A DNA stretch of 64,000 bases from Dipodascopsis uninucleata var. uninucleata (lineage: Eukaryota; Ascomycota; Lipomycetes; Lipomycetales; Lipomycetaceae): NCBI GenBank assembly GCA_030568195.1, contig JAJLTO010000015.1:372001-436000 (forward strand), given 5' to 3'. Position numbers and translations under genes: made by a program. The first letter of the stretch is position 1, and the number at the start of each line of letters is the position of its first letter. A model generated the notes under the pieces. It searched no databases and was not told the origin of the DNA. It was given only the letters and a program-made list of their open reading frames with translations. Positions 84 through 55,574 of this stretch are shown one piece after another.

Positions 84-1040
84 TTAACGTGTATTCTCTA
101 AATGGCTCTTGTAATCCTGGACTATCTGAACAAAAGAATCATCTCGCATAAATCCTGCGTTCAAAGCAAGTGAGTTGTCGAACTTATCGGACCAGGAAAG
201 TAAGATTCTCTCGGCAGCAGGATCTTGGACTTCTTTGACATACTGCAGCTTCTCTTTACCACCGACAAGCTCAAGTGCATCCAGCATTTCTTGAACAGAA
301 ACACCTATTCCAGGGATATTGACTGCTCTAGCATGTGATAAGAAGACTTCAGTATTCATAGTTAGTGCATGCATCAGATTGGCAAGCAAAATACGGGGAG
401 AGCACACCCACGACACGAAAGTCCTGTTTTCGATCGGGACAATGCACTCTTTACCGTCGAATGGCTCTCTGATAATGCCAGAAAGAAACGACGACGCGGC
501 AGCGGTCGGTTTTCCAGGTCGCACTGTGACGGACGGGAACCGAAGCGACAGACCGTCTATGAAAGATCGTCTGGTGTAGTCGTTGATTAGAATTTCTACC
601 ATGAGCTTCTCCGCTCCGTAAGAGGACTCCGGGGTAGGCACCACACTCTCGTCTACTACAGCTGGAAGTGGTCGACCGTAGACAGCACCTCCAGAAGCAA
701 ATACTACCCGGAGACCTGCGTTTTTCTTACGAAAAGCTTCTAACAGTGCTCTTGTTGTATCAAAGTTTGCTTTCATACCGAGTTCGAAGTTGGCTTCTGA
801 TCCACTAGACATAATTCCGTGAAACAGGAAAGCTGCATCTAATTTCCCGTCTACCACACTGTCAATTATCTCAATGAGATCTCCCTTGAGAGAAACTGCA
901 TTTTCAGCATTAAGACAGCCGCGGGGCAGTGGAGGCTGAACAATATCTACCATGACAACTGTATTGTTCTTGTTTTTAAGTAGCTCTTCCACGACCAGCT
1001 GACCCACGAAACCAGCAGCACCTGTTACAAGGATCCTCAT
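84..1040 (-). CDS. NAD-dependent epimerase/dehydratase family protein, D-erythronate dehydrogenase (DenD)-like
   Basis: 318-residue extended short-chain dehydrogenase. The N terminus carries the Rossmann motif TGAAGFVG (residues 6-13), an acidic residue ends the second strand (VDIV, 31-34), and the catalytic pair is Y141/K145 (SSYGAEK). The middle part (DYTRR, RFPSVTVRPG, AASSF, REPFDG) matches the pattern I know from DenD, the bacterial enzyme that oxidises D-erythronate at C2 with NAD; this placement is from memory of the family. The reaction here is inferred: oxidation of a hydroxy-acid or sugar acid in the cytosol, since no signal peptide or membrane segment is visible. The ATG lies 565 bp from the start of the divergent Zn2Cys6 gene, and a TCGG-N7-CCGA palindrome stands 174 bp before this ATG. 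No intron is needed. A general nucleoside-diphosphate-sugar epimerase is the main alternative. Confidence 0.88.
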   Translation of the reverse strand: MRILVTGAAGFVGQLVVEELLKNKNNTVVMVDIVQPPLPRGCLNAENAVSLKGDLIEIIDSVVDGKLDAAFLFHGIMSSGSEANFELGMKANFDTTRALLEAFRKKNAGLRVVFASGGAVYGRPLPAVVDESVVPTPESSYGAEKLMVEILINDYTRRSFIDGLSLRFPSVTVRPGKPTAAASSFLSGIIREPFDGKECIVPIENRTFVSWVCSPRILLANLMHALTMNTEVFLSHARAVNIPGIGVSVQEMLDALELVGGKEKLQYVKEVQDPAAERILLSWSDKFDNSLALNAGFMRDDSFVQIVQDYKSHLENTR

Positions 1041-1605
1041 TTTGCCCGTTTTGTCTCTTTATACAGTATATTACACACTATATCGCACACATACAGAATG
1101 GAACGAAAATATACTGAATCCTACTGTTCATTTTATAGCATATTCGCGTACTTGCTGTCCTTTATAAGCTGGACCAGCAACTTTACTTGAAGAAACCCTA
1201 ATTACCACGTTTATCGGACATCCACCGAGAATTTACTCCATACTTTCTACACCAGGCTGATAGCATTTTACAGAAATTGTACTCATTAGTGTAAGGAAGA
1301 AGTATAATAGGTCAGTGACTAACTAAACAGAAATAGCACTATTTGGATATGGGGTAGTATTATCGGTTTGGCGATGCTATATCTAACGGAAATTTTTAAT
1401 GACCGTAGGTAATACAATTTATTCGCAGTTCATAGTGTAGATTCAACAGTCAAGTATAATTTGATACTACTGTACGATCTCTAACTGATTCTAATGCAAA
1501 ATAAAAATCTCGTCCAACAGAGAAATCCGTGTTAAGAGCTCTATGATAATACTAAAATCATATGCAAAATTGCTACGGAAATTTTATGCTTAGGCAGTAA
1601 ACAGC
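1041..1605. promoter_or_regulatory. Divergent intergenic promoter, DenD-like gene / Zn2Cys6 regulator
   Basis: The 565 bp between two divergent start codons hold no convincing gene. It contains the palindromic site at 1214-1228, closer to the dehydrogenase (174 bp) than to the regulator (377 bp). It could serve both genes, which would make the regulator autoregulated; that is inference. Confidence 0.6.
1214..1228. promoter_or_regulatory. Candidate Zn2Cys6 operator TCGG-N7-CCGA (site 1)
   Basis: TCGGACATCCACCGA: two inverted CGG triplets separated by 7 bases, with flanking T and A completing a 4+4 palindrome. Zn2Cys6 dimers are known to bind inverted CGG triplets with a fixed spacer. The same 4+4 pattern recurs before the aldolase and the MFS transporter at nearly the same distance from the ATG (174, 181 and 190 bp). 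Confidence 0.65.
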
Positions 1606-3720
1606 ATGGAGAATAGTATGGATCGGTCTGAAAATTTACCAGAAGCAAACTCACATGTGCCAGAATATGTGGTCGTTTCTAAAGGACGAGCATGTAAGAT
1701 ATATATGATTTCTAAAAGTTGTGTATATTAAGATTCCTAACTTACAGTATTCATAGGCGTCGAGTGCAAAAAGCACAAGATCAAGTGCGAAATGCGCCCT
1801 AATAGTATCAGCTGTGTACGATGTAGGAAGAAGCGACTGAAATGCGTCAATAGCAATGAAATCCGACGATTGTTGGATGAGGGAGAAATGTACGTATAAT
1901 GCTGTATAAATTACAATGGTAATAATTACTGATAGGATGACTAAAAAAATAGATGGAGAACAGAGTACTCGAGCCAATTAATTCAGTTGCGCTCGGCGGT
2001 GTCTACCTTACTGCGTGCAAATAATCTCCCAGACATACTGTCGTTTCCAGTGAAAGCCGAACAAAATGATTTAGATTTGCCTGAATCCAATGCGGTTGAC
2101 AAGAGACTTTCAGACACATCAATGCAAGATGAAACGCCTCTGGCTGAGATGCCATTGAGTGCTCCGTCGACGTCTATGACAGAGAATGGACAGCAGGCAA
2201 ATACTAACCGCGAAGCAGGGATGGATCAAGTAAAGGAACTAGAGCCAGAATTGGTGGATGCTCCTATGAATAGTGTGTATGAGGTAACAAAGTTAGAAAC
2301 TCTGAAAGGATACAGTAAGGGCGATGGAGTGTCAACTAAGTCATGCTTAGAAGAGGACTTTATATCTGCTGGACTTTTGGGACTGGAAGAAGCAGAGATG
2401 CTCTTTTCTTTTTTTTACCGTACTATGAATCAATTTCTCTGGGGAGGTATTGCTCTCCCATATAATGATTTAGAGTCTGTTAGACGTGCCTCTTCTATTC
2501 TTACCACAGCTATCCTCTCCGTTGCAGCCCTGAATCTACCTAATAGTAACAAGGCATTCCTAAATTGTTATAACGAATATATTAGACTGACGTTCACAGT
2601 AACGTTAAGTAGAAATCACAGCTTAGACGAACTCCGGGCACTTATTATTGGTGCTTTTTGGCTTCCGGACTTGAGTTGGAAACTTTCAGGTCTTGCTATC
2701 AGAGTTGCCACTGAGATGGATGTTCATAAGAGTGTGCGAAGACTAATAGTGAATGGAGATGAGAATGAATTTGAGCGAGCGAAGATTTGGTACTTAATAT
2801 ATATACTAGAACACCAAATCAGCATCGCTTACGGACGACCGCCATCTATCTACGAAGATTTTTCAGTTCAAAACTACAATGACTTTTTAAAGTACAGAGG
2901 AGTAACTCAGTCTGATCTGAGAATGATTGCTCAAGTAGCCCTGTACAAAATATTAGCACGAGCATATAAACGATTCGGTCTCGATACCGATCAATGCCTC
3001 TCGGAAGAAGATCTTAATGACCTGAGACTATTCAATCTAGAATTAGACCAATGGCGGATAGTATGGAAACCAAAGCTAGGTAATTAATATTTCACACGGT
3101 AGATTGCTGACTGAAGAAACTATGCTAACATCCATCGCTCAGAGGACAGCCCATATGTGGGATCATATCCAGCTAAAGGTGTAATTTGGCATCACCATTT
3201 TGGTAAATTCCAACTGAACGGACTGGCATTTAGAGGTTTACCGCCGAACGGTCCTGTGTCGACAGACCGCAGAGAGCTATCCAACATAGCAATTGCATCT
3301 GCAGTGGCAACACTTCATATTACATTCGAGGAAGAAGATTTACGAAAAGCTATCTCGGGCGTACCAATCTACACGCACGCAATGGTGGTCTTTTGTACGG
3401 TGTTTCTACTAAAAGTTGCTTGGAAGTGGAACCGCTCATCACTGAATATAGATCGCACCCAGGTGCTGAGTTTAGTTGATAGCGTTGTTAGCTTATTATC
3501 ATCAGAGCGCGTCAATGAGAAGCATATAATACACCATAGTGCTATGGGTTTAAAGGCAATGTTACTTAAACTGAAAGAAAAAGATAGATCGTCGGAATCG
3601 CCGTCGTCAGAGCAGCTTCGCCAGATTGATCTGCTGACAGGTGACTTGTCATTCGGAGGCTTCGGCTTCGACGAAAATTGGACCGCTTTTTCGATGAGCA
3701 CATATGACTATTTCATGTAA
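1606..3720 (+). CDS. Zn2Cys6 fungal-type transcription factor, four exons
   Basis: Proposed exons are 1606-1693, 1757-1889, 1953-3079 and 3143-3720 (641 residues). Splicing joins GRA-C-VEC, giving the binuclear zinc cluster C30-x2-C33-x6-C40-x8-C49-x2-C52-x6-C59 followed by a basic run (RKKRLKC). The first intron cuts inside the first Cys codon. All three introns are 63 nt; donors are GTAAGA, GTACGT and GTAATT. The middle region (about residues 210-430, with WGGIALPYNDLES, RRASSILTTAI and ILEHQISIAYGRP) resembles the fungal-specific regulatory domain of this class. It should bind inverted CGG triplets as a nuclear dimer. It sits between the dehydrogenase and the aldolase, so it is the natural pathway-specific regulator. 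An upstream in-frame ATG at 1606 is preferred over 1618. The second intron's acceptor is the least certain boundary. Confidence 0.87.
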
Positions 3721-4647
3721 ATGATGTGATTTTTGTTTATTATATGTAATAACTACCATTGGGAAATGGCTTTCTAGATCAATTACGGTATGATTTCTGG
3801 GTTTTTGGACTTTTAATCGCCTGCTTTTTAATTTTGGTGTTTTGTACTTCTCTTTCATACCGTATACAATTCTCATATCTCTTAATACTATTTTTGCTGC
3901 CATATTCTATTGGATTGATTTTATTACGATTGTATTGTATCTATTGAGCTAAAGCCAATGTATAGATGTCTCTACGCTGATATTTGTGTTTAAATATATA
4001 TACAAACAGTAGAATTAGACCTAGCGCATTTCTGTGATATATTCAATGACTATAGTAGCCCATAATTATAATACAGCACTTGGTGATCTGTACCAGTCTA
4101 GTTTACCTTCAATTGCAGCATTTGATAGAGTTGTTAGCAATTGGGTGTACATATATGTATTGTATCATACTTAACACTACACATACAACACTAATCCTAG
4201 CACTTACAATTCTCAACTGTCACTTTCCAAGACAACCCACCTTCAGGAGGTTGAGGACTTCTCCACTTTTTTACCCTTCTCCTTAATTGCATTTAAGCGT
4301 CCGGCTCGAATTCTGTTCATGGATATTTCTCCATTTTTACCGGACATTTCCCCGGTTGTATGCGACATAAATTAAGCTTTTGAAATTACATCAGGAGAGG
4401 TACAGTGACCCTACTTACAATGCGGGGTAAAGACCACTTCATAAGGAATTGTTCGGAAAAAGTCCGACGCTAGACGCGGTGTTAAGTTCGGCGCAACAGC
4501 GAAAACCTGAACGAGGACAAGAAAGCTGAACGATAAATACTCGCAAATATACTAAATAAACAATAATAGATCACTTGCTGACCGTCACTTGCTGAACAAA
4601 TAATCATAGAAATCAAAAATTATATTTCAAATTTTGATATATAAATC
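3721..4647. promoter_or_regulatory. Intergenic region with the aldolase promoter
   Basis: About 0.9 kb between the stop of the regulator and the start of the aldolase. Short open frames here are AT-rich and unsupported. The aldolase-proximal 350 bp are visibly richer in G/C and contain the palindrome at 4453-4467, plus an imperfect relative with an 8-base spacer (CGG-N8-CCG) near 4339-4352. Confidence 0.55.
4453..4467. promoter_or_regulatory. Candidate Zn2Cys6 operator TCGG-N7-CCGA (site 2)
   Basis: TCGGAAAAAGTCCGA, a perfect 4+4 inverted repeat with a 7-base spacer, ends 181 bp before the aldolase ATG. It has the same half-sites and spacing as sites 1 and 3 but an unrelated spacer sequence, as expected for a true binding site rather than a copied segment. 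Confidence 0.65.
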
Positions 4648-5773
4648 ATGTCTGAGTATCCTTACAATAACTTGACCTGGCAGATCCTTGACGCCGCTGA
4701 GAAGGGCAACTATTGTGTTGCCGCCTTTAATTGGTATGTGGGATAAGTGGGGTGGGCGGATTTGGTAGTGAAGCATGGGTCCTCATTTACAGCAAATACA
4801 TGATATTAAAATAAAGATCGTGTGTTACTGTGAATATTGCAATAAGCATGCCGAGCAGAAAAAAGAACAATGGAGAATATAAATCTATTGGGCACTGGCT
4901 GAGATTTTGCGGGATGCAAATGAACGAATGGAAATATAGATATTCGCTTAATATACACAGCTACTAATAGTTGGTTCATATGATTATAGTTACAATGCCG
5001 ATAGTGTTCTCGCCTCTATCAAGGCCGCTGAGGAAATGAACTCACCTGCGATGATCGAAATCTTTCCGTGGTCCATGCACTTCCAGGGTCCGGAGTACGT
5101 CAAGTTTGTTGCCAATGCTTGTCATGCTGCTAAGGTACCGATATCGCTTCACATGGACCATTGTACTCTTGAGGAGGATGTCCTTCTCGGTTTAGAGCTA
5201 CCATTCGATTCTATCATGGTTGATGCTGCTAGTACTGACAATGAAGAGAACATTGCATATGTTTCGAAGATCGTTAAGCTTGCAAAGGAAAAGGGGATGA
5301 CCATTGAGGCGGAGATGGGCCGTATTTCTGGCACCGAGGATGGTATCATTTCTGCTAAAGAGATGGAGCAGAAGTTTACAGAGCCTGATATTGCTGCTGA
5401 ATTCGTTGCCAGGACTGGGTGTCATTATCTCGCTCCTTCCTTTGGTAATATCCATGGACCGTATCCAGAAGGTGGTCCTGCCAAGTGCTGGCAGCTTGAC
5501 AGATTTCAAAAAATCCGCGAGTCAATTTCCAAGGATACAAAGATGGTGCTTCATGGTGTTTACCCAGTAGATGAGGTGATGGTTAAGAAGGCTATTGAGA
5601 TTGGTGCTCGTAAAGTTAATATTAACAAGAACTTGTACATACCATACCTGAACTTTTATAAGGAGCATGTGGACAGTTTAGAAATGACCCTTCTTAGTGA
5701 AGGTTCACAGAAAGCATTTGTCGAAGAGGCTAAGAGGGTCTTAGAATTGGTAGGATCTGTTGGAAAGGCATAA
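4648..5773 (+). CDS. Class II (FBA/KbaY-type) aldolase-like protein, two exons
   Basis: Exons 4648-4733 and 4990-5773 (289 residues) are separated by a 256-nt intron with donor GTATGT, branch-like CTACTAAT and a TATAG acceptor. The splice gives VAAFNC-YNADSVLA, the usual N-terminal strand of the family. Zn/catalytic features are HMDH (83-86), the EAEMGR strand (E135/E137), H184 in GNIHG and H217 in LHG, consistent with the metal-dependent TIM-barrel aldolases that cleave ketose-1-phosphates. The usual phosphate-binding GGSG loop after LHG is GVYP here, and the NVxT-type motif is NINKN (239-243), so the substrate may not be a standard bisphosphate. The length is normal for the family. The gene carries operator site 2 and converges on the MFS transporter gene (172 bp gap). 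Its role in sugar-acid breakdown is inferred. Confidence 0.88.
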
Positions 5774-5945
5774 TAAATTTACTTATTTGATCTTTTTGTT
5801 TACATGATAATTTTTTTGATTACTTTCATATTTCTAATTCTAAATATATTTTATATACTAATAGAATAAACGTGAGTCTTATTATATGCGCTTAATAATA
5901 ACTTTAATTCATAAACTAAAAACCAAATACAAAATTATACAAAAT

Positions 5946-7664
5946 TTACTTTGCAATTTCTTTCTCTAATTCAGGTTCTGCATCCTTAGATATAGATAAT
6001 GGCGCTATACCTGTAGCCTCTCGCTGCGCCAATAGTTCTTCAAATTCTTTCTCAGCCTTCCACACAAATGGTGAACTGGTCGAAAACAAAATATCCAAGT
6101 GCTCCAAATGGCGTCGAGCTGTTTCCACATAGAATAGATAGACAGGAATGAGCATAACAAAATTTACGAGCGAAAAAAGAATCAATGTCCAGAAACCAAT
6201 TGCACTGGTAAGATACGGTATAATTTCGTTGATTACTCCACCAGCAATGGAAAATGCTACGGTTGCCAGAGCGGTTCCTTTTGCACGACACGACAAAGGG
6301 AACACCTCGACAGGATATACCCAGCATGTTGTTAACCAAGTAGAACCATATGCAAAAGTATAGCAATAAAGAATTGTTGCTACACCAGCTGCGTATTGTG
6401 CTGTTTTAGCCGGATTTGTGTCCGAGAGTGCTTCAACTTCATGAGCTAAAATTCCACCGATCAACAGTAAAATACCCATAGCCAAGCAACCACCTAACAT
6501 CAATCTTCTACGACCTACATGGTCCGAAAGATACATAGCTAGAAGCAAACTGAAGAAATAGCCAATAAAGTTGCAGCCTGCCAAGACGATAGATTTGTCA
6601 CCAGAGAAACCCGCTAGAGTGAAGAGTTCAGGCGCGTAGGTCACAACAAAGTCAATTCCAGTAAACTTTTGCATGATTTGAACTCCGGCACCAAGTATGA
6701 TTCGTCTTCTGGTATTCTGTTTGTCTTTGATAAAGAGCATACTGTAAAAGGTGTGATGAGCACCTTTTTCTAATGCAATAGAGTCCAAGATCTCATTGAT
6801 CTCATCCTCGATTTTCTCTGCATCAGGATGTAATCGGCAACGCTCCAATACTTCTCGAGCAGAATCCACATGACCCGTTTGCACCAAGTGTCTAGGTGAC
6901 TCAGGAAAAAATGGGCAACACACAAGGATAAAGAGCAAGAAAATGATCTGAAGGCCCAGTGGAAATCGCCAAGAGAATGACAAACTTCGCGACTTTGTGC
7001 AAGCATATTCAGTCCAGTACACGATTATTTGGCCAACGATAGCTAGAGCAAATTCGAAAGACACGAATGCACCTCGAAGATGAGGATCAGCTATCTCAGA
7101 TGTCCAGATAGGAACAATAGTATTTAAATGTCCACAGCCTACACCACCAAGGATGCGACCAAAAGACATCCAAGCAAAGTTTTGCGCCGAAGATTGAAGA
7201 GCAGCTCCAAGAATGGCCCAATAACAGCCGATAGCAATTGTTTTCAGTCTTCCAACTCTATCAGCCAAGTAACCAGTAAATACGGCACCAAAGAGAAATC
7301 CAAGGAACCACAGACTAACTAAACCTCCGATAGCAGCAGCATCTCTCGAAGATCCAGATGATGCTTTCATCAAACGAAGATAGTCGTCGTTGGTATTGAC
7401 TTGACTCATGCAACTGGCATCAAAGCCAAAAAACATAATGGCTGTACCAGCAAGCATAAGAATAGCGTAGCTCATGCTCTTTCCCTTCAGCTTGATACAC
7501 CTACTCGGTGAATAACCTCCAGGGATAAATTTCTCCATCCTCGACTCAGGCTTGAAGAGACCTTCACGAGTGAGGTGAGCCACCATGTCAAACTCTGACT
7601 GCTCTGCGGTGGACTTCTCCGCAAGAACATCATTATGTTTCGCGTTGACTTTTTCCGCAGTCAT
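5946..7664 (-). CDS. MFS sugar-porter family transporter
   Basis: 572 residues, twelve predicted membrane segments and long cytosolic ends. Sugar-porter signatures are present in order: GYLADRVGR after TM2, GRILGGVGCG in TM4, PESPRHL before the central loop, LSDHVGRRR after TM8, and VYPVEVFPLSCRAKG with a modified C-terminal VETARRHLEHLD (usually PET). It should be a plasma-membrane proton symporter or facilitator for a sugar or sugar acid; the substrate is not readable. Two CGG-N7-CCG sites lie 190 and 275 bp before the ATG, tying it to the regulator at 1606 and to the aldolase and dehydrogenase. No introns are needed. The start is the first ATG in frame, and the N-terminal 60 residues are hydrophilic. 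Confidence 0.93.
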   Translation of the reverse strand: MTAEKVNAKHNDVLAEKSTAEQSEFDMVAHLTREGLFKPESRMEKFIPGGYSPSRCIKLKGKSMSYAILMLAGTAIMFFGFDASCMSQVNTNDDYLRLMKASSGSSRDAAAIGGLVSLWFLGFLFGAVFTGYLADRVGRLKTIAIGCYWAILGAALQSSAQNFAWMSFGRILGGVGCGHLNTIVPIWTSEIADPHLRGAFVSFEFALAIVGQIIVYWTEYACTKSRSLSFSWRFPLGLQIIFLLFILVCCPFFPESPRHLVQTGHVDSAREVLERCRLHPDAEKIEDEINEILDSIALEKGAHHTFYSMLFIKDKQNTRRRIILGAGVQIMQKFTGIDFVVTYAPELFTLAGFSGDKSIVLAGCNFIGYFFSLLLAMYLSDHVGRRRLMLGGCLAMGILLLIGGILAHEVEALSDTNPAKTAQYAAGVATILYCYTFAYGSTWLTTCWVYPVEVFPLSCRAKGTALATVAFSIAGGVINEIIPYLTSAIGFWTLILFSLVNFVMLIPVYLFYVETARRHLEHLDILFSTSSPFVWKAEKEFEELLAQREATGIAPLSISKDAEPELEKEIAK

Positions 7665-7853
7665 TTTATCTAGATCTGCTTCGACTTTACTAATAATATC
7701 GTATATATGAGTATGAAGGTATTACTTGTAGAGCTTGTCTCTTAGTTGACACAAGAAACATGAATCTACTTATATATACTCGTTTCGCTCTTGAAGACAG
7801 CTTCCATGTGGTTGTACCTAGATACGAAATTAAGCTAATGTACTACCCCACCT

Positions 7854-7868
7854 TCGGTGCACCACCGA
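7854..7868. promoter_or_regulatory. Candidate Zn2Cys6 operator TCGG-N7-CCGA (site 3)
   Basis: TCGGTGCACCACCGA, a perfect 4+4 inverted repeat with a 7-base spacer, begins 190 bp upstream of the transporter ATG at 7664. The half-sites are identical to sites 1 and 2. Confidence 0.65.
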
Positions 7869-7938: not shown

Positions 7939-7953
7939 TCGGATCAAAACCGC
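7939..7953. promoter_or_regulatory. Candidate Zn2Cys6 operator TCGG-N7-CCGC (site 4)
   Basis: TCGGATCAAAACCGC keeps both CGG triplets and the 7-base spacer but has C instead of the final A. It stands 85 bp beyond site 3 in the same promoter, so the transporter may be controlled by a pair of dimers. Confidence 0.5.
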
Positions 7954-8842: not shown

Positions 8843-11050
8843 TTAGTCAAAAAATATAGTTTTGCCGGTTGCTTCGTCAAATGTGACATCGATGACGGCC
8901 TTTCCCTCCTCATTTATACGGACATTAATTCCATCATGATCATGCCAAAACTTGGAAACAACAGTATTTGCTGTAACGTACGTGTAGCGGCCTTGCAAGC
9001 GTGTTGACAGCGGCCTCCCAAAAGAACTCGAGAAAATGACTACCACGCCGCGTCCAGTAGAAGGATTGATCTTTTCGTAGACCTCGGGATTGCCACCGAC
9101 GTTGCCTACCTTAATAATCTGAGCAGCGGTAACGTCTTCTCTAACTGCCTTATACTTGGATAAGTATAAGTGCATGCGCGCGACTCCTGCGTCAGATATG
9201 GCGTGAAGATCTCCCCAGATGCCATTCTGACCTAAAATCAGTGATGCAATATTAGCCTTCTGGGCTTCTGCGCCTGCGTCTGTGTCTTTAGCAGCGAGCA
9301 TGCTGGCGCCAATATACCGATTGTGTTCTACGTATTTGTCATCTATAGGTTCCGAATCATCCGGATAATAGTGAGTCAGAAATAAAATGGAGGGGATCCA
9401 CTTGTCATAGACAAGTGGTGTTCGGCAGATCCACGCGCGAGCGGGTCCAGGATAGAAGAACAGATTAGGATTGCGTTCCGAGGAACCTTTCTTTATCTGA
9501 GGAGGGAATGGGAAGTTGTAGTTCATATGGTATGGACCATTATTGATCAAGAAGAACTTCCCGGCGGAAAGGAAAGAGAGACCCACAAAACGAGATCCTT
9601 CTGTCACGTCAAAGTCCACAATGGCCTCAGGAATGGCCGCAGAAAGACGCTCCACAATTTTAACCATGTATAAACCAAGCTGAAAAGCATATGAATCTGC
9701 TCGGTCTCCCGCCGAGCATGACGCATCTCCATGATAATGATCCGGACTGTTGCAACCATATTGACTGATAGCATCCCACTTAAAATATGTGACCCCTAGA
9801 GTCCTTGCACGTTCAATCAACTTGTCTGCGAAATCCTCAGAATACCTGCTCACTAGACACATCTGATAAGCTTCCTCAGAGTCCCAGACTTTCTCCGGAT
9901 CTACAACTGTACCATCCCACGACATGGTACAGTCTTTATGTTCGATGTAGAGTTTACTGGATATGGCGGCAGATTTTGGCTCAAACCAAAGACCAAGACG
10001 CATACCATAGCTATTCAGTCTATTCTTCACTTCAGCCAGGCCATCAGGAAACTTATTAGTATCAACGAGCCAGTCTCCCGCAAAGCTGTACCAACCGACA
10101 TCAATTACATAGACATCAATGCCCATGGCATATGCACGATCTATGTCTCTCAAAATGAACTCCTGGTTAATCGGATCGAGATATTTGCCGCCGAACCAAT
10201 GCTTCTGCCTCTCCTGACGATTCCACGTGTTATAGAATATGTATGGACTACGACTCGCGGGATTTGGGGCCATATACTTCAGCAAAAACTCGCGGAACTC
10301 GCTCGCGAGTTGGTCTATTGTCCCATCTATAGCTGCAAAATCAAAGAATATTGAGCTAAATGGAGCTGTCGCAAGCACTTGTCCTGCAGTATAGTTTCCC
10401 TTCACAGCCTTGACTGCTAATCCACCTGAAGGATCAAGTTGGAAGCGTAGAAAACGGTCTGGATATTGGCTGCCGTGCTCATAGGATATCACAACGCTGG
10501 TGCCATTCTGTCCATGCCCAGCTATTATTGGACCCATATACGAACAACAACTATTGAATTCGCTTTCTTTTATGTCAATTTCATTTAGGGTGTAGCTGTG
10601 AACAGGCTCAAGGTACTCTGACAGCCTGATCTCCTTCGCTCCGGTTTTGCTTAGCGACACCTTTGTATAGCAAAGGTTATCACAACCTGAAGACTTTGTC
10701 AGATGTCCGCTTCCGTCAAGCAGATACTTAAACCGAATTACAGGACTGCTGGGCGCAATACGTAAGACAATAGATAGAGTTAAATGCTCGGCTCCTCTCA
10801 CGGGCCCTGAGCTCACAAGCTCATAGATGTCGCTCGAGATCTGTTCCACTAGTGGCTGAGACCATGAACTGACATTTGCAGATACCAAAGTACCATCCAC
10901 TTCAAAGTCAGGAGAGCGAAAGTAGAACACATCTTTTCCAGGAACCTCGACCGACAGAAAATGCTGAAGGTCCGTAAGAAGCCTCAACTTATACTTCAGT
11001 CGCTCTGGTAGTTTAATCTCGATGGAACCTTGCTTCTCAGATGCAGTCAT
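8843..11050 (-). CDS. GH36-like (clan GH-D) alpha-galactosidase, intracellular
   Basis: 735 residues. An N-terminal beta-sandwich-like part (about 1-260) is followed by a TIM barrel with FYNTWNRQ (272-279), YVIDVGWY, LGLWFEPK (352-359) and the nucleophile motif YFKWD (D426). The FDVTEGSRFVG segment (480-490) corresponds to the Gly-rich substrate-binding loop. GH36 enzymes hydrolyse alpha-1,6-galactosides by a retaining mechanism. No signal peptide is visible (the protein starts MTASEKQG), so it should act in the cytosol on an imported sugar, fitting the divergent MAL-type permease. Where typical GH36 enzymes have an SD acid/base motif, this protein reads LINNGPY, so specificity or chemistry may differ. 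The gene is intronless and starts at the first ATG. Other alpha-galactosyl or alpha-N-acetylgalactosaminyl activities are possible. Confidence 0.85.
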   Translation of the reverse strand: MTASEKQGSIEIKLPERLKYKLRLLTDLQHFLSVEVPGKDVFYFRSPDFEVDGTLVSANVSSWSQPLVEQISSDIYELVSSGPVRGAEHLTLSIVLRIAPSSPVIRFKYLLDGSGHLTKSSGCDNLCYTKVSLSKTGAKEIRLSEYLEPVHSYTLNEIDIKESEFNSCCSYMGPIIAGHGQNGTSVVISYEHGSQYPDRFLRFQLDPSGGLAVKAVKGNYTAGQVLATAPFSSIFFDFAAIDGTIDQLASEFREFLLKYMAPNPASRSPYIFYNTWNRQERQKHWFGGKYLDPINQEFILRDIDRAYAMGIDVYVIDVGWYSFAGDWLVDTNKFPDGLAEVKNRLNSYGMRLGLWFEPKSAAISSKLYIEHKDCTMSWDGTVVDPEKVWDSEEAYQMCLVSRYSEDFADKLIERARTLGVTYFKWDAISQYGCNSPDHYHGDASCSAGDRADSYAFQLGLYMVKIVERLSAAIPEAIVDFDVTEGSRFVGLSFLSAGKFFLINNGPYHMNYNFPFPPQIKKGSSERNPNLFFYPGPARAWICRTPLVYDKWIPSILFLTHYYPDDSEPIDDKYVEHNRYIGASMLAAKDTDAGAEAQKANIASLILGQNGIWGDLHAISDAGVARMHLYLSKYKAVREDVTAAQIIKVGNVGGNPEVYEKINPSTGRGVVVIFSSSFGRPLSTRLQGRYTYVTANTVVSKFWHDHDGINVRINEEGKAVIDVTFDEATGKTIFFD

Positions 11051-11082
11051 ATTTTCTTTAAGTCCTAATTATATGTTCGTCT

Positions 11083-11096
11083 TCTCGAGCCAATTT
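11083..11096. repeat. Direct repeat TCTCGAGCMAATTT, copy 1
   Basis: 14-base motif centred on CTCGAG, repeated at 11351-11364 with one difference (C versus A). It lies just upstream of the GH36 gene start and is a possible transcription-factor site. Confidence 0.35.
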
Positions 11097-11350
11097 GGAA
11101 ATGTACAAGGTATTTGGAGGAAATACGTGATTATAGTGCTTCAAAGCTTTATGCGACGTACCAACTACTTGTCACTGCATGACCCTTTTATAATCATCAG
11201 TCTTTCGCTTAAATCGATTACTCAAGTGCGATGTCACATTCTAAACAGCCTAATAGAATCTATTGCTTAAAATCATGATTCAGCTCAAGGAACCAATCGA
11301 TCCAGGACAAGCAATTGCAACTGCATGTTTAATAGGATGCCGTCACAGAG

Positions 11351-11364
11351 TCTCGAGCAAATTT
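11351..11364. repeat. Direct repeat TCTCGAGCMAATTT, copy 2
   Basis: Second copy of the 14-base motif, 268 bp from the first, in the same divergent promoter. Confidence 0.35.
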
Positions 11365-12166
11365 AGCGTAGTTGGTAAGCAGTAGAGTTAGGTAAACCGT
11401 CCATATAAAGAAAAGCAAACAATATTTCCATCCCCGCAATTTTCTCTTTTAGCTGAAACATCATATTTATCCGCAATTTAAGCTGCAATATGACTATCCT
11501 CGTGGGAGTCATCCTCCTCATCGGCATGGAAAAATAATGACGGTATTTAATACCTTACTATGGTTTTTATGTAGGTATAAGAAGACAAGCAGACATTCGA
11601 CAAGAAATCTGCCCTGATTTTGGTCACTTACAGAGGTATCAATACATTGCCGGTACAAGACTCATCTAAATCTATACATAGAATACATGGATCAAGGCAA
11701 ACACTGGACACTATGAAAATAGATATTTCGCGATTTATAATTACAATTGTAACCCCACAAAAATAGCTCTAGCTAGCAAAAGTGATTCCTGTTACCTCAT
11801 CTCATATGCCATTATGAGAAACTTATTTAACCGTGTTCGCCAGTATACTTCACCGTCTACCCGCATTTTACCAAACTGATCTGGACAGTGTCTAACATAT
11901 ATTATTCTCTGTCTCACTCGCTGTATAGACGTGGGGGGGCAATGTTTTGACACGAGGAGCTCAGAAAAGCTTCATAATGCGTCATAAGATATCGAAATAT
12001 AAATATCCGCGAACACGATCATACTACTGCGCTCTCAATCATATAAATCTCAACATATCTTCCAACGAAAGAAGTATCCAAATAGTATACTGATAGTATC
12101 AACAATCACGTCCACAAATTGTCGGTAAGTGGATTAATATATGCTATCATCAACTATACAGACACG

Positions 12167-13825
12167 ATGACGGATATTCAACTTGAACCAACTAAACTTG
12201 ATCTTTTGCACGTAGAAGATGACACAACCCTAGATAAAGAAACCAGTAAGTATACTGGCCATAAAATGCTAGAGGAGGCTAAGAAGGCAGCAGAGCGTGA
12301 ACATGCACTTGGAATAGTCGATGCTCTTAAGGCTTATCCTTATGCTGTGTTGTGGTCGTTCATTGTGTCTATGACTATTATCATGGAAGGATATGACACC
12401 AATCTTATAGGAAACTTTTTTGCCTACCCACAGTTCAAAGAATATTACGGAAATTATTATCCAGGTCTCGGACGAGAAGTGTCTGGCCCTTGGCAGGTAG
12501 CTCTTACCGATGCACAAAGTATCGGTACCTTTTTTGGTGTACTTATCAACGGATATGCCAGCAAGCAGTTTGGTCACAAGAAAGTATTGCTGGTATCTCT
12601 AGTATTGATGATAGCATTTGTGTTTTTGACTGTATTTGCTCCGAGTGTGGAAGTTCTGTTCGTTGGCCAGTTACTTTGTGGGTTCCCTTGGGGGGTATTT
12701 GCGACGATCGGCCCTGCTTACGCATCAGAGGTATGTCCTCTGGCGCTTAGAGGGTATTTGACTAGTTATATCAATCTTTGCTTTGCAACCGGACAACTCA
12801 TTAGCGCTGGAGTTCTCTATGGATGTAAAGACATAGACAATGAGTGGTCATTCAGAATTCCATTTGCTGTGCAGTGGGCTTGGCCAGCACCGCTCATAGT
12901 TATTCTTTACTTTGCTCCTGATTCTCCCTGGTGGCTCGTAAGAAAAAATAGACTTGCCGATGCAGAGAAGGCTATGCGAAGACTGTGTGCAAAAAATTCA
13001 CCGACGTCCCCTGAGCAGATGATAGCTCTAATAGTCCATACGAACAATCTTGAACTCCAGCTAGAGACGGGTGACTCGTACTTCGATTGTTTCAAGGGAA
13101 CCGACTTACGACGAACTGAAATCAGCTGTGTTTCTTTCGCCGGTCAGGTACTAGCTGGCTCTCAATTCGCGTATAGTCCGACATACTTTTTTGAGCAAGC
13201 AGGCATGGATACATCTCAGGCCTATAAGATGAACATAGGAGGTACAGCTTTAGCTTTCTTCGGAACCTGTTTGTCATGGATATTCATGACTTTCCTTGGC
13301 CGACGCACAATATATATAAGCGGTATGGCTGCAATGTCTACGCTTCTGATCGTAGTAGGATTTCTTTCTCTTGCACCTGAGTCTAACAGCTCAGCCCTGT
13401 GGGGTCAAGCGGCATTGACTGTACTTTGGCTTTTCAGTTTCTCCATGAGTGTTGGACCTGTTGGTTGGGCAATTCCTAGTGAGACTTCATCCACTCGATT
13501 GCGACAAAAGACTGTCTGTCTGGCTCGAAACGCGTACTATATTTCCTCTATCATTGCAGGTGTTCTTAGTCCGTATATGATAAACCCGACAGAGTGGAAT
13601 TGGAAAGGAAAGACGGGCTTTTTCTGGGGTGGCTCTGCTTTTTTGACTACTGTTTGGGCGTACTTCCGCTTGCCGGAAACCAAAGGGCGCACATTTGCAG
13701 AGCTTGATGTCCTTTTCGAAAAGCGTGTCCCAGCAAGAAAGTTCAGATCATATGCCGTAAACGCGTACTTAGATGAAATTGATGAAATAATTAAGCAGGA
13801 CGATACAGAAAACACACCTGTATGA
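12167..13825 (+). CDS. MAL-type alpha-glucoside/alpha-galactoside:H+ symporter (MFS)
   Basis: 552 residues from the first ATG at 12167; the open frame extends to 12119 without an ATG. The pattern is that of yeast maltose/general alpha-glucoside permeases: MEGYDTNLIGNFFAYPQFK in TM1, PWQVALTDAQSIGT before TM2, CGFPWGVFATIGPAYASEV in TM4, PDSPWWLVRK before the central loop, GRRTIYISG, and PETKGRTFAELD at the C terminus. These permeases import disaccharides with protons across the plasma membrane. Lying divergent from a cytosolic alpha-galactosidase, it probably brings in that enzyme's substrate (melibiose, raffinose or galactinol type); this is inferred from position. No intron is needed. Confidence 0.92.
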   Translation: MTDIQLEPTKLDLLHVEDDTTLDKETSKYTGHKMLEEAKKAAEREHALGIVDALKAYPYAVLWSFIVSMTIIMEGYDTNLIGNFFAYPQFKEYYGNYYPGLGREVSGPWQVALTDAQSIGTFFGVLINGYASKQFGHKKVLLVSLVLMIAFVFLTVFAPSVEVLFVGQLLCGFPWGVFATIGPAYASEVCPLALRGYLTSYINLCFATGQLISAGVLYGCKDIDNEWSFRIPFAVQWAWPAPLIVILYFAPDSPWWLVRKNRLADAEKAMRRLCAKNSPTSPEQMIALIVHTNNLELQLETGDSYFDCFKGTDLRRTEISCVSFAGQVLAGSQFAYSPTYFFEQAGMDTSQAYKMNIGGTALAFFGTCLSWIFMTFLGRRTIYISGMAAMSTLLIVVGFLSLAPESNSSALWGQAALTVLWLFSFSMSVGPVGWAIPSETSSTRLRQKTVCLARNAYYISSIIAGVLSPYMINPTEWNWKGKTGFFWGGSAFLTTVWAYFRLPETKGRTFAELDVLFEKRVPARKFRSYAVNAYLDEIDEIIKQDDTENTPV

Positions 13826-14189: not shown

Positions 14190-15227
14190 TCAGTAGAGCT
14201 TGACTTCAGCGATCTTCTTGCCGCGTAAGCTTTCCATAAGAGCAGATCCGATGGAGACTGCCTTAGCAGCATCCTTTAGGTTGAAGTTTGGTGCTTTATC
14301 TTCAAGAATCCAATCACGGAAAGCCTCAATCTCAAGCTTGAAAGCGTATCCAAAGATCTCCATGTGGGAAGCTGGACCTTCCATACGAGTACCATTCTCA
14401 TCGGAAATTTCAAGACTAATCAAGCGTGGCTCGCCGTTAATAAGGAGACGGCCCTTAGTTCCGATGACCTCAGTCATAGAGTGGTGACCATGGCGATTAT
14501 CACGACTACCATAGACGTTCATGATAACATCGGACTCCTTGAAAGTGATAATTCCCATACCATCGTCAACATCGCCGAAGGCCTTAAACTCCGGGAAGAC
14601 GTTAGTTGTACCAGTACCGTAGGCAGTGTCAGGAGTCTTGTCCTTGCCAATAAGGTAGAGACAGGCATCAATGTCGTGGATACAGCAGTCAACAAATATA
14701 CCTCCAGAGGTAGCAATGTACTTCATCATGAAGTCATTGCGAGCATAGAGGTCAGTAGTTTGAGATCGGATCGTCATAACCTCACCGATATCGCCATTGG
14801 CGATGCGCTTGCGGGCCTCGACGTATGGCTTTGCATAGCGACGAGGGAAGCCACAGCAAACCTTGAGATGTGGATACTTAAGAGTCTCGTAGTAAAGCTC
14901 CCATGCGTCGACAGCATTGGAGCAGATAGGCTTCTCGCAGAAGACGTGCTTGTTCTGCTTGAGAGCCGCCTTGACCTGCTGTGCATGGAGAGCACTTGGG
15001 GTGACAATGAGAACAGCGTCGAAGACATCAGATTTGATGAACTCGTCGTAATCCTCAAAAGTAGCAATACCCTCTACATTGTTCTTAGCCCATTCGAGTT
15101 CAGACTTGACGACAGAGCAGACAGCTGTGACCTGGATAAATCTGGTATCGATCATGTTCTCTACATGGATTTGACCCATGCGACCGCATCCAGCGATACC
15201 CATTCGAAGTATTTTTGATCCCGTCAT
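14190..15227 (-). CDS. Gfo/Idh/MocA oxidoreductase, inositol 2-dehydrogenase-like (IolG type)
   Basis: 345 residues. The N terminus has GIAGCGRMGQIHVENM (GxGxxG, about residues 10-25), followed by the EKPICSN loop (about 98-104), where the Lys is a conserved catalytic residue, and GGIFVDCCIHDID with the active-site Asp/His pair. The family oxidises cyclitols or sugars with NAD(P). The closest pattern I recognise is myo-inositol 2-dehydrogenase/D-chiro-inositol 3-dehydrogenase, but substrate calls in this family are unreliable. It acts in the cytosol and has no intron. Codon choice is visibly biased to C/G-ending codons (ATC, GTC, AAG) compared with its neighbours, which suggests high expression and also produces a long antisense open frame. 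It is convergent with the MAL-type permease; if galactinol-like compounds are imported and split, inositol would be the next substrate. Confidence 0.85.
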   Translation of the reverse strand: MTGSKILRMGIAGCGRMGQIHVENMIDTRFIQVTAVCSVVKSELEWAKNNVEGIATFEDYDEFIKSDVFDAVLIVTPSALHAQQVKAALKQNKHVFCEKPICSNAVDAWELYYETLKYPHLKVCCGFPRRYAKPYVEARKRIANGDIGEVMTIRSQTTDLYARNDFMMKYIATSGGIFVDCCIHDIDACLYLIGKDKTPDTAYGTGTTNVFPEFKAFGDVDDGMGIITFKESDVIMNVYGSRDNRHGHHSMTEVIGTKGRLLINGEPRLISLEISDENGTRMEGPASHMEIFGYAFKLEIEAFRDWILEDKAPNFNLKDAAKAVSIGSALMESLRGKKIAEVKLY

Positions 15228-16130: not shown

Positions 16131-18122
16131 TTAGTGCGCAAAACGGAAGTCAAGGCGTTTGTTGCCTTCATCAGTAGTCGTGGATATGTAAGCCAGACGC
16201 TCTTCGATAGTCATGCGCTTCCATTTTGCATCTCTTTGCTTGTTCCTGTATATGTAATAGAATTTCGTACCCAAGTATATAACCAAATTCATGCAGTTGA
16301 TTGCAATCAGCACGCTATTACCGCGTCGATATAAAGGCTTATCGTCAGCTCGATAAATATTGTTCGATATAATACCGCCGAGCTGACAGAACATATTGTA
16401 CATGGCGGCAGACACAGTTCGCGTGCGCACACTATTAGAGTTGCGAGATGTCCACCCGACCTGAATTGCATGTGCTATGTTTGAGAGTTAGTAAATCCAC
16501 TGTTAAGCAGGCACATTACTATATACATTGGATATCGGTGCTTACTGTATGGACCACAGAGGATCAATGTTGTGACGATATATTTGGCCCACTTGCTCGT
16601 AGATTCTGAAAATGTTCGAAGAGGAATCAACAAAACCAACACCCAAACCTGGCACATGAGCCCGTGGTAGCTTCGTTCATTGAACCTTTGTGACATATAC
16701 GAAACTATAAGAAGCTTTGAAAGTAAAATAATGGTTATATTAGTCAGGTACAGATCAGATATTAGGCTAATTGGTGTCGGATAACTTACAAAGACAAGAT
16801 GCAATACCTGGTAAGGTAGTCCCATAAGTGTTGTTTGAAAAGTACTGAATCCTAGCGAACGCAATGTAAGAGTCAGATAGTTGCTCTCTGGTGTAGACGG
16901 GATAGTGAAGGTAAGACCAATTATGTAGATTGGCCATAGATCATAGTCCGTGACTGATTTCCAGAACATTTTCCAGTCAATAGCCTGACGATTGTGCATG
17001 TCGCCCTTGGAAGGATCATCGCGCAGAGCACGATTGACAATCAACTTTTCTTCTTTTTCATTAAACCATCCATTTCTTCCTCTGAACCACGACTTTGTGG
17101 CCGTGGGACTGGCTGGCAAGTAAAGGAAAGCAAAAATTCCAATCAAAGCTGTAACGGCGCCTTCAATCATGAACAACCACTGCCAGCCCGCTCGTCCTCC
17201 CACGCCTCTCATGTGAAGAATTCCAAAAGCCATAAACGATGACACGATATCCGCTAGGGTCATTGCTGTCCAGAAATATGCTAGACGTACAGGTAACTCG
17301 ATTGCAGTATAAAAGTACGAGAGATACAAGCACACATCTGCAATGAATCCACCTTGTAGAGCACCAAGCAGAGCACGGGTCACGTAGAAAGAGGCCTTGC
17401 TATCAATTGCGAATTGTGCCATAGATACTGCACTCCATGCTATAATCTATTAAATTATCATTAGGATATATCATCTCAATACCAGACAGATCAACTGACA
17501 TACCTGGATAGGAATCCAAACATCAGCTCCTAGTTTCTTGCTGACCAATTGAGAAGGAACTTCTGCCACCAAGAAGCAAAGCTTGAAAATAGTGTTTCCG
17601 TTGTTATAATCATTAGTGCTAAGTTTGAGATCGTCAAGCATGTTATCTGCCAGAGCTTGTGAAAGATTTCCTCGATCTATCTCAAGTGCCATGAACATAA
17701 TACAAACCCAGATCATAATTCGAACATCTATCTTTCTCACGACAGACTAGATAGTCAAAATCTTTGTTAGTCGACTTTAAACTAATTTGAGTGAGCTTGT
17801 AGCTAAGACATACTATTTCTTCACGCCATGTCCATCTCTCCTTAGGATCAAACCTATGCAGGTTCTCATATTTCGGATGTGGTTGATACAGCTGAGCCTT
17901 GTCTGGGTCATCGAAGACAGAGGGCTGCGTAGCAATTGAATCAAGATCTCTATCACTTGGACCTTTATTCCAGAAGTAATAAGAGCCAGGAGTATCTGCA
18001 GAAAGCTGTGGCCAGTAATCTGGGATATTAAGGTCTAGAGCACTTTCTGAGCTACCTGAGCTGTCCCTTTTCTCAAGGACTTCCAACTTTATAGACTCCG
18101 TCTTGAACTTTTCGTCGACCAT
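16131..18122 (-). CDS. Dal5-family (anion:cation symporter) permease, five exons
   Basis: Proposed exons, in coding order, are 18122-17814, 17746-17504, 17446-16790, 16714-16546 and 16474-16131 (573 residues; introns of 67, 57, 75 and 71 nt). Splicing restores the family sequence across every junction: [10 protein letters not shown] after exon 1, [39 protein letters not shown] and [24 protein letters not shown]. The C-terminal block ([28 protein letters not shown]) is typical of allantoate, nicotinate, pantothenate and vitamin H permeases. The hydrophilic N terminus is about 105 residues, long for the family but usual in yeast members. It should be a plasma-membrane organic-anion/H+ symporter with unknown substrate. 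The third intron is a multiple of three without a stop, so a retained form would add 25 residues. Confidence 0.9.
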
Positions 18123-54300: not shown

Positions 54301-55574
54301 TTATTGCATGTTTGCCGCTTATGATTGGCACTGGATATGGCCGTTTTTCTCTCTTGGCTCAAGTACAAGCTCAAGCTAAGGCAATGAGTGAAGCATCATC
54401 GGCATATGCATGCGAGGCAGTCTCCACTGTTCGTACTGTAGCAACTTTAACACGTGAAAAGGATATTATAGAGACTTATGAACGTGATTTAGTTGATCAA
54501 GGACGGAAAATGAGATTTGCATCATTTAAGTCTTCGGCCCTATATGGAGCTGCACAATCTATGCAGTTTATTATCATGGGCCTTGGATTCTGGTGGGGTT
54601 CGCGATTTGTCCGAACTGGCACTTATTCACCGTTTCATTTTTACGCTGCCTACATGTCATCTATTTTTAGCGCCCAAAATGCGGGTGTTGTATTTTCTTA
54701 CGCTGCCGACATAAGCAAGGCGAAGGCTGCGGCTATTAGTATCAAGAAATTATTCGACCGTAAACCTGAAATCGATCTATGGAATGATGATGGAATTATT
54801 CTCGATTCAGAAAAGGTTGAGGGTGAAATCGAGTTTCGTGACGTTCATTTCCGTTATCCAACTCGAAGTGCAATTCCTATTTTACGCGGCCTCAATTTGA
54901 AAGCCAGCGTAGGCGAGTATATTGCTCTAGTTGGTGCGTCAGGCTGTGGGAAAAGCACTACCATTAGTCTGATTGAGGAATTCTACCGACCCTTGAGTGG
55001 GCAGCTTCTCTTTGATGGGAAAGATATAAATACTTTAAATATTTCAAACTATCGCAGTCATATCGCATTGGTACAGCAGGAACCAGTATTGTACGCTATG
55101 ACTATTAAAGAGAATATTTTACTTGGGTCCCTTGAAAAGCCTGAAGAGATCTCAGACGAGCGTCTTGTTAACGTATGCATGCAGTGTAATATCCATGACT
55201 TTATTGTCTCACTTCCTGATGGATATGAGACGATGTGCGGTACAAAAGGTGTCTTACTTTCAGGTGGACAGAAGCAGCGCATTGCCATTGCTCGTGCTCT
55301 GATCCGAGATCCTAAAGTCCTTCTGTTGGACGAAGCGACATCGGCATTGGACTCTGAGTCAGAGAAGATTGTCCAGGCAGCGCTCGATCGGGCAGCAAAG
55401 GGGCGTACGACGATTGCTGTTGCGCATCGTCTGAGTACAATTCAGAACGCCGATCGCATTTATGTATTTGATGGTGGAAAGGTAGTGGAGTCCGGAACAC
55501 ATTTGGAACTTTTAGAATTGCAGGGACGGTATTTCGAGCTGGTACAGGCGCAAGCATTGGAAGCGTCGAAGTGA
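51389..55574 (+). CDS. Full-size ABCB (MDR/Pmd1-like) ABC transporter, three exons
   Basis: Exons 51389-51673, 51726-51946 and 52001-55574 (1359 residues) with introns of 52 and 54 nt (donors GTACGC and GTAAGT). Splicing joins RPLMT-ILVGNIAQLFVTY and NKIA-FFFIMLAITDSIAST, restoring TM1-TM2. The architecture is TMD-NBD-TMD-NBD. NBD1 has Walker A GASGSGKST, signature LLSGGQKQR and Walker B ILLLDEATSALD; NBD2 has GASGCGKST, LLSGGQKQR and VLLLDEATSALD, so both sites look catalytically complete. A linker of about 100 residues rich in Ser/Asp/Glu separates the halves. The first extracellular loop is long and carries several N-glycosylation sequons. Family members (S. pombe Pmd1, Aspergillus MDR-type) export hydrophobic drugs and toxins at the plasma membrane; an a-factor (Ste6-like) exporter is less likely. 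The GTACGC donor is slightly atypical. Confidence 0.95.

What the first reader, a model, noticed from the sequence alone, without database searches (positions are those of the whole stretch)
84..7868. Candidate undescribed catabolic regulon: DenD-like dehydrogenase, class II aldolase and MFS porter under one Zn2Cys6 factor
Seen: four adjacent genes, and the promoters of all three non-regulator genes carry TCGG-N7-CCGA at 174, 181 and 190 bp before the ATG. Known: Zn2Cys6 dimers bind inverted CGG triplets with fixed spacing, and DenD belongs to bacterial four-carbon sugar-acid pathways. FBA-type class II aldolase domains occur fused to a four-carbon acid sugar kinase (DUF1537) domain in large plant and fungal proteins. 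Inferred: import, oxidation and retro-aldol cleavage of a sugar acid. No kinase gene is in the window, so a partner may lie elsewhere or the aldolase may act on a non-phosphorylated substrate.
Basis: partly seen in the sequence, partly recalled or inferred. Interest (0 to 1): 0.82.

Follow-up and report, generated by a model that had tools for sequence, protein, structure and literature searches.

The report
Yeast sugar-acid catabolic gene cluster
In a yeast genome, four neighbouring genes (a transporter, two enzymes of sugar-acid type and a switch protein) appear to be controlled together through one short DNA signal, and a sister cluster elsewhere in the same genome carries the same signal, which points to a possible sugar-acid breakdown route.

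Summary
TCGG-N7-CCGA lies 174, 181 and 190 bp before the ATGs of the DenD-like, aldolase and MFS genes. The genome (Dipodascopsis uninucleata) has 54 such sites in 16.2 Mb; one in each of three promoters within 6.7 kb is far beyond chance, even allowing for 78 CGG/CCG arrangements.

Independent support: on contig 10 a regulator paralog and a DenD paralog flank TCGGCGGAACACCGA, near an L-threonate-dehydrogenase-like gene and a dihydroxyacetone-kinase (DAK) gene. A second DenD-aldolase pair on contig 5 lacks the motif.

No DUF1537 kinase was found in the genome. The aldolase keeps its metal ligands but has K/R where DHAP aldolases have Thr. DenD scores just below its family cut-off.

Best reading: a sugar-acid catabolic regulon, probably with a DUF1537-free route. 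Substrate, step order, binding and co-expression are untested.

The parts
84..1040 (-). DenD-like NAD-dependent dehydrogenase (extended SDR type), 318 aa, no intron
   Evidence: ORF; NF043036 D-erythronate dehydrogenase 309.4 bits, cut-off 325; PF01370 69.7 bits; best solved relative 2hrz
1214..1228 (+). TCGGACATCCACCGA, predicted regulator site in the shared DenD/regulator intergenic region
   Evidence: 174 bp to the DenD ATG, 378 bp to the regulator ATG
1606..3720 (+). Zn2Cys6 regulator, 641 aa, introns 1694-1756, 1890-1952, 3080-3142
   Evidence: model; PF00172 and PF04082; identical to P0241
4453..4467 (+). TCGGAAAAAGTCCGA, predicted regulator site before the aldolase (181 bp)
4648..5773 (+). 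class II (F_bP_aldolase) aldolase, 289 aa, intron 4734-4989; metal ligands kept, phosphate-clamp positions changed (HGVYP, NINK)
   Evidence: model; PF01116 248.1 bits; identical to P0121; residue counts
5946..7664 (-). MFS sugar-porter-family transporter, 572 aa
   Evidence: PF00083 305.3 bits; TIGR00879 278.1 bits, cut-off 237.8
7854..7868 (+). TCGGTGCACCACCGA, predicted regulator site before the MFS gene (190 bp)
7939..7953 (+). TCGGATCAAAACCGC, second CGG-N7-CCG upstream of the MFS gene (one mismatch to TCGGN7CCGA); possibly chance

Best explanation
The locus is a small catabolic regulon for a sugar acid. Inferred working: the Zn2Cys6 protein binds CGG-N7-CCG as a dimer and, with an inducer, switches on the porter, the DenD-like dehydrogenase and the aldolase. 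The porter imports the acid; DenD oxidises a hydroxyl next to the carboxylate to an oxo-acid; the metal-dependent aldolase splits or decarboxylates this oxo-acid without prior phosphorylation by a DUF1537 kinase; the triose or aldehyde product enters central metabolism through a DAK-type kinase and possibly the aldehyde dehydrogenase encoded next door. A sister locus on contig 10 (regulator paralog, DenD paralog, L-threonate-dehydrogenase-like gene, DAK gene) shares the site and probably handles the same or related acids. Shown: genes, sites, their excess over chance, the site at the paralogous locus, no DUF1537 match in the assembly, the aldolase residue change. Inferred: binding, co-regulation, substrate, order of steps.
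For: Site in 3 of 3 promoters; 0 of 20000 shuffles share an arrangement with the same flanks. Independent site C10:531376-531390 between a regulator paralog (first ATG of its open frame C10:530778, -) and a DenD paralog (ATG C10:531767, +); a second CGG-N7-CCG lies 66 bp before that regulator ATG; shuffles of the 988-bp stretch give TCGGN7CCGA in 99 of 20000 and two CGG-N7-CCG in 30 of 20000. Both DenD paralogs are 54% identical to the window's, the regulator paralog 31%. L-threonate-dehydrogenase-like ORF at C10:526954-527871 (NF043037 206.8 bits, cut-off 350, ORF cut by the locus edge). DAK match at C10:523190-524143. Of 11 species named in both lists, regulator and DenD have equal contig length in 8 (best 120 rows of each), with close locus tags in three (A. 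wentii MW887_001300/001301, A. tanneri EYZ11_005231/005233, L. kononenkoae V1525DRAFT_409409/409414); also two unnamed contigs of 7165 and 33344 bases. DUF1537 not found. Aldolase: K or R at residue 242 in 110 of 114 ungapped rows of the 120 listed homologs, Thr in the genome's glycolytic aldolase and in 79 of 80 bacterial relatives, the other one gapped.
Against: DenD and both paralogs score 308-311 bits, below the cut-off of 325. The aldolase reaches no NCBIfam cut-off among its 20 listed families. The motif is rarer genome-wide than its reversed control (54 against 97). Of the 46 sites fetched outside the window, 22 (the contig-10 site among them) lie outside ORFs of 100 aa or more, and the ORFs scanned beside such sites are mostly of unrelated families. 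The contig-10 site is 377 bp before its DenD, not 174-190. The second DenD-aldolase pair (contig 5) has no CGG-N7-CCG upstream and a different Zn2Cys6-like gene between (seen by eye; no contig-5 match to the regulator). No exact site lies between C10:453387 and C10:531376, so the DAK and L-threonate-dehydrogenase-like genes have none of their own. K/R could still bind a phosphate. The aldehyde dehydrogenase promoter has no site within 2 mismatches in 657 bp. Three of the 11 species do not match in contig length, two of them visibly different assemblies.
Confidence: 0.6

Rival explanations
1. Phosphorylative route: a kinase of another family (for example the DAK-type one) phosphorylates the oxo-acid first and the aldolase then works like bacterial 2-OtnC, releasing DHAP; the K/R still grips the phosphate.
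For: F_bP_aldolase-type 2-OtnC belongs to three-step threonate pathways (PMC12540250, passages and section 5); bacterial relatives of the aldolase have a DUF1537 kinase in the held flanks in 3 of 80 loci; DAK gene near the sister locus.
Against: The bacterial relatives, those three included, keep HGASG and NVNTE-type T (79 of 80, one gapped); the window branch has lost both; no DUF1537 match in this genome.
Confidence: 0.25
2. The substrate is not a C4 acid but a pentonate or hexonate: DenD makes a 2-oxo-aldonate and the aldolase cuts C3-C4, giving hydroxypyruvate (the carboxylate analogue of DHAP, held by K/R) and glycolaldehyde or glyceraldehyde, which the neighbouring aldehyde dehydrogenase could oxidise.
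For: K/R in place of the phosphate-binding Thr; DenD below the D-erythronate cut-off; aldehyde dehydrogenase gene adjacent; DenD and this aldolase branch paired twice in the genome.
Against: I know of no such natural pathway (recall, not a search); the aldehyde dehydrogenase lacks the site.
Confidence: 0.3
3. The genes are neighbours by chance and the shared motif is a coincidence or a site of an unrelated Zn2Cys6 factor.
For: Relatives of the regulator lie on several contigs; the reversed motif is commoner genome-wide than the motif.
Against: Shuffle tests, the paralogous locus and the recurring regulator-DenD linkage.
Confidence: 0.1

Closest known systems
Bacterial three-step L-threonate pathway (LtnD, 2-OtnK = DUF1537, 2-OtnC = F_bP_aldolase) and the fused Arabidopsis LTD protein (PMC12540250; passages and section 5 seen)
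   Same: Acid-sugar dehydrogenases and an F_bP_aldolase-type last enzyme
   Different: No DUF1537 kinase found in this genome; aldolase of a fungal branch with an altered phosphate site; control by a Zn2Cys6 protein
Zn2Cys6-controlled sugar catabolic gene sets of ascomycetes, e.g. FUR1/L-fucose of Trichoderma reesei (PMC12370193; passages seen)
   Same: Zn2Cys6 regulator next to a dehydrogenase gene, with transport and catabolic targets
   Different: The pathway proposed there uses another SDR (FDH1), the dehydratase LGD1 and the aldolase LGA1
3pm6, putative fructose-bisphosphate aldolase (Coccidioides, organism recalled)
   Same: Closest solved relative; also FPW and NVNR at the altered positions (alignment)
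   Different: Named only 'putative' in the entry; other fungus
Ppr1/UaY-type sites TCGG-N6-CCGA (recalled, no call)
   Same: Same half-sites
   Different: Spacing 7, not 6

Membership tests
D-erythronate dehydrogenase DenD (NF043036) | score over the curated cut-off of 325 bits | tested here: not met
   309.4 bits over residues 1-312; paralogs 311.3 and 307.9
D-erythronate dehydrogenase DenD (NF043036) | activity on D-erythronate | not testable with these tools
   needs an enzyme assay
Class II F_bP_aldolase (PF01116) | family score over cut-off and metal-ligand histidines | tested here: met
   248.1 bits, cut-off 25.5; in the 120 listed homologs H83 116/120, H86 119/120, H184 120/120, H217 116/116 ungapped
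DHAP-dependent FBA/GatY/KbaY or 2-OtnC | phosphate clamp HG(G/A)SG and Thr in N-x-x-T (role recalled from class II aldolase structures) | tested here: not met
   HGVYP and NINK in the window protein; clamp kept in the glycolytic paralog and in 79 of 80 bacterial relatives, one gapped
DUF1537-type acid-sugar pathway | DUF1537 kinase present | tested here: not met
   PF07005 and PF17042: 0 matches in the own assembly, controls ring in 3 of 14; exon-by-exon search of an assembly that may be incomplete
Zn2Cys6 (Gal4-type) regulator | Zn2Cys6 cluster plus fungal transcription factor domain | tested here: met
   PF00172 25.3 bits (cut-off 21), PF04082 37.2 bits (cut-off 23)
Regulon with TCGG-N7-CCGA | site shared by the member promoters and by a second related locus | tested here: met
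   binding itself not tested
Regulon with TCGG-N7-CCGA | site conserved in other species | not testable with these tools
   I had no fungal DNA beyond the own genome

The most novel reading that the evidence does not exclude
A fungal sugar-acid pathway that dispenses with the DUF1537 kinase: DenD/LtnD-type oxidation, then an aldolase branch whose phosphate clamp has become a carboxylate (or other) site acts on the free oxo-acid, and phosphorylation comes last through a DAK-type kinase, the whole run by an old Zn2Cys6-DenD gene pair using TCGG-N7-CCGA.
Probability: 0.3. Interest if true: 0.68.

Novelty: new variant of a known kind. Interest (0 to 1): 0.52.

Why it matters
In the searches I found no described regulator for fungal breakdown of small sugar acids (threonate, erythronate, aldonates). 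This locus gives a testable regulator, a defined site, a regulator-enzyme gene pair that recurs in other ascomycetes where public records call the parts 'prtT' or 'epimerase', and an aldolase branch (nearest solved relative 3pm6, named only 'putative') with a specific hypothesis for its substrate class.

Tried and rejected
Kinase elsewhere under the same motif: one search lists 50 of the 54 sites; 4 of the 50 are in the window and the flanks of the other 46 were fetched. I scanned 16 ORFs beside 16 of these 46 sites against Pfam. Three had no family; the others were ketol-acid reductoisomerase, inositol polyphosphate kinase, MFS sugar porter, malate synthase, DUF4743, acetylglutamate kinase/reductase type, AtuA, cytidylyltransferase, ATP synthase B, ATP-grasp/CoA ligase, WDR3-like, MFS_1 and FAD-linked oxidase. 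No acid-sugar kinase or sugar isomerase. Two further sites (C19:27854, C22:114582) were placed but not read; two of the 54 were never placed.

Bacterial context for the substrate: 91 bacterial loci encode a relative, the best 80 were returned, nearly all cyanobacterial by title. No ORF in them matches the window DenD at E 1e-8; 3 of 80 hold a DUF1537 kinase. No direct substrate clue.

OtnI and 3-OtnC partners: one PF00596 match (C6) and PF01261 matches on C7 and C16, none near the clusters.

Synteny in other fungi: no fungal DNA could be searched; I compared contig lengths and locus tags by eye, from the best 120 rows of 4605, 312 and 468. Contig length is that of a protein cluster's longest contig, so equal length is indirect, and large contigs make it weak. 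Regulator against DenD: 11 species in both lists, 8 equal; the three others are P. chermesinum and L. tetrasporus (different locus-tag series) and Paecilomyces variotii (strain not clear). Aldolase against DenD: 6 species in both lists (A. wentii, A. melleus, A. ambiguus, T. proteolyticus, P. brasilianum, L. kononenkoae), 0 of 6 equal; only A. wentii DTO 134E9 is surely one assembly by its tags.

DenD tree of 35 rows: contig-5 and contig-10 DenD group with Lipomyces DenD (97/91), the window's falls with other fungi (92/88), but all three are long branches, so orthology is unsure.

Papers: no fungal erythronate/threonate regulator in the listings (10 of 76 listed). PMC12540250 (passages and section 5) and PMC12370193 (passages) were seen; other papers only in listings. 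Guo 2024 and Zhang 2016 are not held and are known to me through PMC12540250 and recall. Not used: structure prediction and fold search.
Full report
Organism and genes. The window is contig 15, bases 372001-436000, of a 16.2-Mb, 25-contig assembly. The spliced aldolase and regulator models are identical to proteins named for Dipodascopsis uninucleata (P0121; P0241).

The motif. TCGG-N7-CCGA is at the stated places and distances. The window has 4 sites against 0.28 expected; one is inside the GH36-like ORF. The genome has 54, its reversed control 97, so what is unusual is the clustering: 0.022 expected in 6.66 kb, P(>=3) about 2e-6. Allowing 78 arrangements of CGG/CCG, a common arrangement in three shuffled 500-bp promoters appears in 16 of 20000 trials, with common flanks in 0 of 20000; with full intergenic lengths it is 24 and 1 of 8000.

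An independent test. The genome holds two further DenD genes, both 54% identical. One, on contig 10, stands next to the best paralog of the regulator (31%). The 988-bp stretch between their first ATGs holds TCGGCGGAACACCGA and TCGGTTCAGATCCGG; shuffles give the exact motif in 99 of 20000 and two CGG-N7-CCG in 30 of 20000. The regulator paralog's start is taken from an open frame, not from a gene model. Given 50 other sites, 0.006 would be expected within 1 kb upstream of the two DenD paralogs. The site is 377 bp before this DenD, further than in the window. Beyond the regulator paralog lies an ORF best matched by L-threonate dehydrogenase (NF043037, 206.8 bits, cut-off 350, ORF cut by the locus edge), and about 3 kb before that a DAK-type kinase match (C10:523190-524143, one of four DAK places). 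The stretch between these two was not readable, and neither has an exact site of its own.

A counter-case. On contig 5 a DenD and a class II aldolase again sit together (1320712-1321656 and 1324857-1325633), with a Gfo/Idh/MocA gene, a short-chain dehydrogenase and another Zn2Cys6-like gene (by eye), but with no CGG-N7-CCG in the 697 and 766 bases read upstream of DenD and aldolase. So DenD and this aldolase branch go together twice in one genome, only once under this motif.

Recurrence in other fungi. The best 120 of 468 regulator homologs are 38-49% identical (the window protein itself aside) and come, where named, from ascomycetes (Lipomyces, Aspergillus, Penicillium and others); several are labelled 'transcriptional activator of proteases prtT'. 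Locus tags differ by 1, 2 and 5 in A. wentii, A. tanneri and L. kononenkoae. Equal length is indirect evidence and weak for large contigs; the close tags are the strong part. The older unit therefore seems to be regulator plus DenD; the aldolase joined it in this lineage. I did not trace the MFS gene.

The aldolase. Metal-ligand histidines are kept, but the phosphate-clamp positions (role recalled from class II aldolase structures) differ. In the 120 listed homologs, residue 242 is R in 88 and K in 22 of 114 ungapped rows; residue 219 is T in 99 of 115; residue 220 is H in 82, Y in 12 and S, the canonical residue, in 4 of 112. The glycolytic aldolase of the same genome keeps HGGSG and NLDT, and the bacterial relatives keep HGASG and T in 79 of 80, one gapped. 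FPW at 54-56 marks the fungal branch (F 117/117, P 117/117, W 114/117) and is in 0 of 80 bacterial relatives. The nearest known role of such aldolases in acid-sugar catabolism is 2-OtnC, acting after a DUF1537 kinase (PMC12540250). No such kinase was found here.

Mechanism. I infer import, NAD-dependent oxidation and metal-dependent cleavage of a free oxo-acid. For a C4 acid the product would be dihydroxyacetone plus CO2, taken up by a DAK-type kinase; for C5/C6 acids hydroxypyruvate plus glycolaldehyde or glyceraldehyde, the aldehyde suiting the dehydrogenase gene just left of the window, though that gene lacks the motif. None of this chemistry is shown.

Verdict. The pattern is real, non-random and supported by a second locus; the sugar-acid reading is plausible, but DenD misses its family cut-off and nothing here shows the substrate. 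A new variant of a known kind, the Zn2Cys6-controlled catabolic cluster.

Noticed in passing
8843-11050 (-): GH36-like gene (Melibiase family, 69.8 bits) whose coding sequence holds a fourth TCGGN7CCGA at 9701-9715; no site within one mismatch in 11051-12000, the nearest 950 bases of its promoter side.
   Followed up: partly
12167-13825 (+) and 14190-15227 (-): Second sugar porter and an inositol-2-dehydrogenase-like Gfo/Idh/MocA gene (236.3 bits, cut-off 355): possibly a separate catabolic pair next to the regulon.
   Followed up: partly
L073:658 to L054:1036 (contig 15, left of the window): Aldehyde dehydrogenase gene tail-to-tail with DenD; no site within 2 mismatches in the 657 bases read upstream.
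   Followed up: partly
L055 and L052 (contig 5, 1319212-1327133): Second DenD plus class II aldolase pair with another Zn2Cys6-like gene, a MocA gene and an SDR, without the motif.
   Followed up: partly
L045 (C12:494929-494943): A motif site about 2.5 kb from another DAK match (C12:497418-498397); the site is on the 3' side of that gene.
   Followed up: no
L038 (C10:371351-371365): A motif site 552 bp before a malate synthase ORF; hits of this kind may well be chance.
   Followed up: no
16475-17422 (-), 52011-55574 (+), 61651-63237 (-) and 63461-63970 (-): ORFs that look by eye like an MFS gene piece, an ABC transporter and an oligopeptide-transporter-like gene in two ORFs; not scanned against any library.
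   Followed up: no
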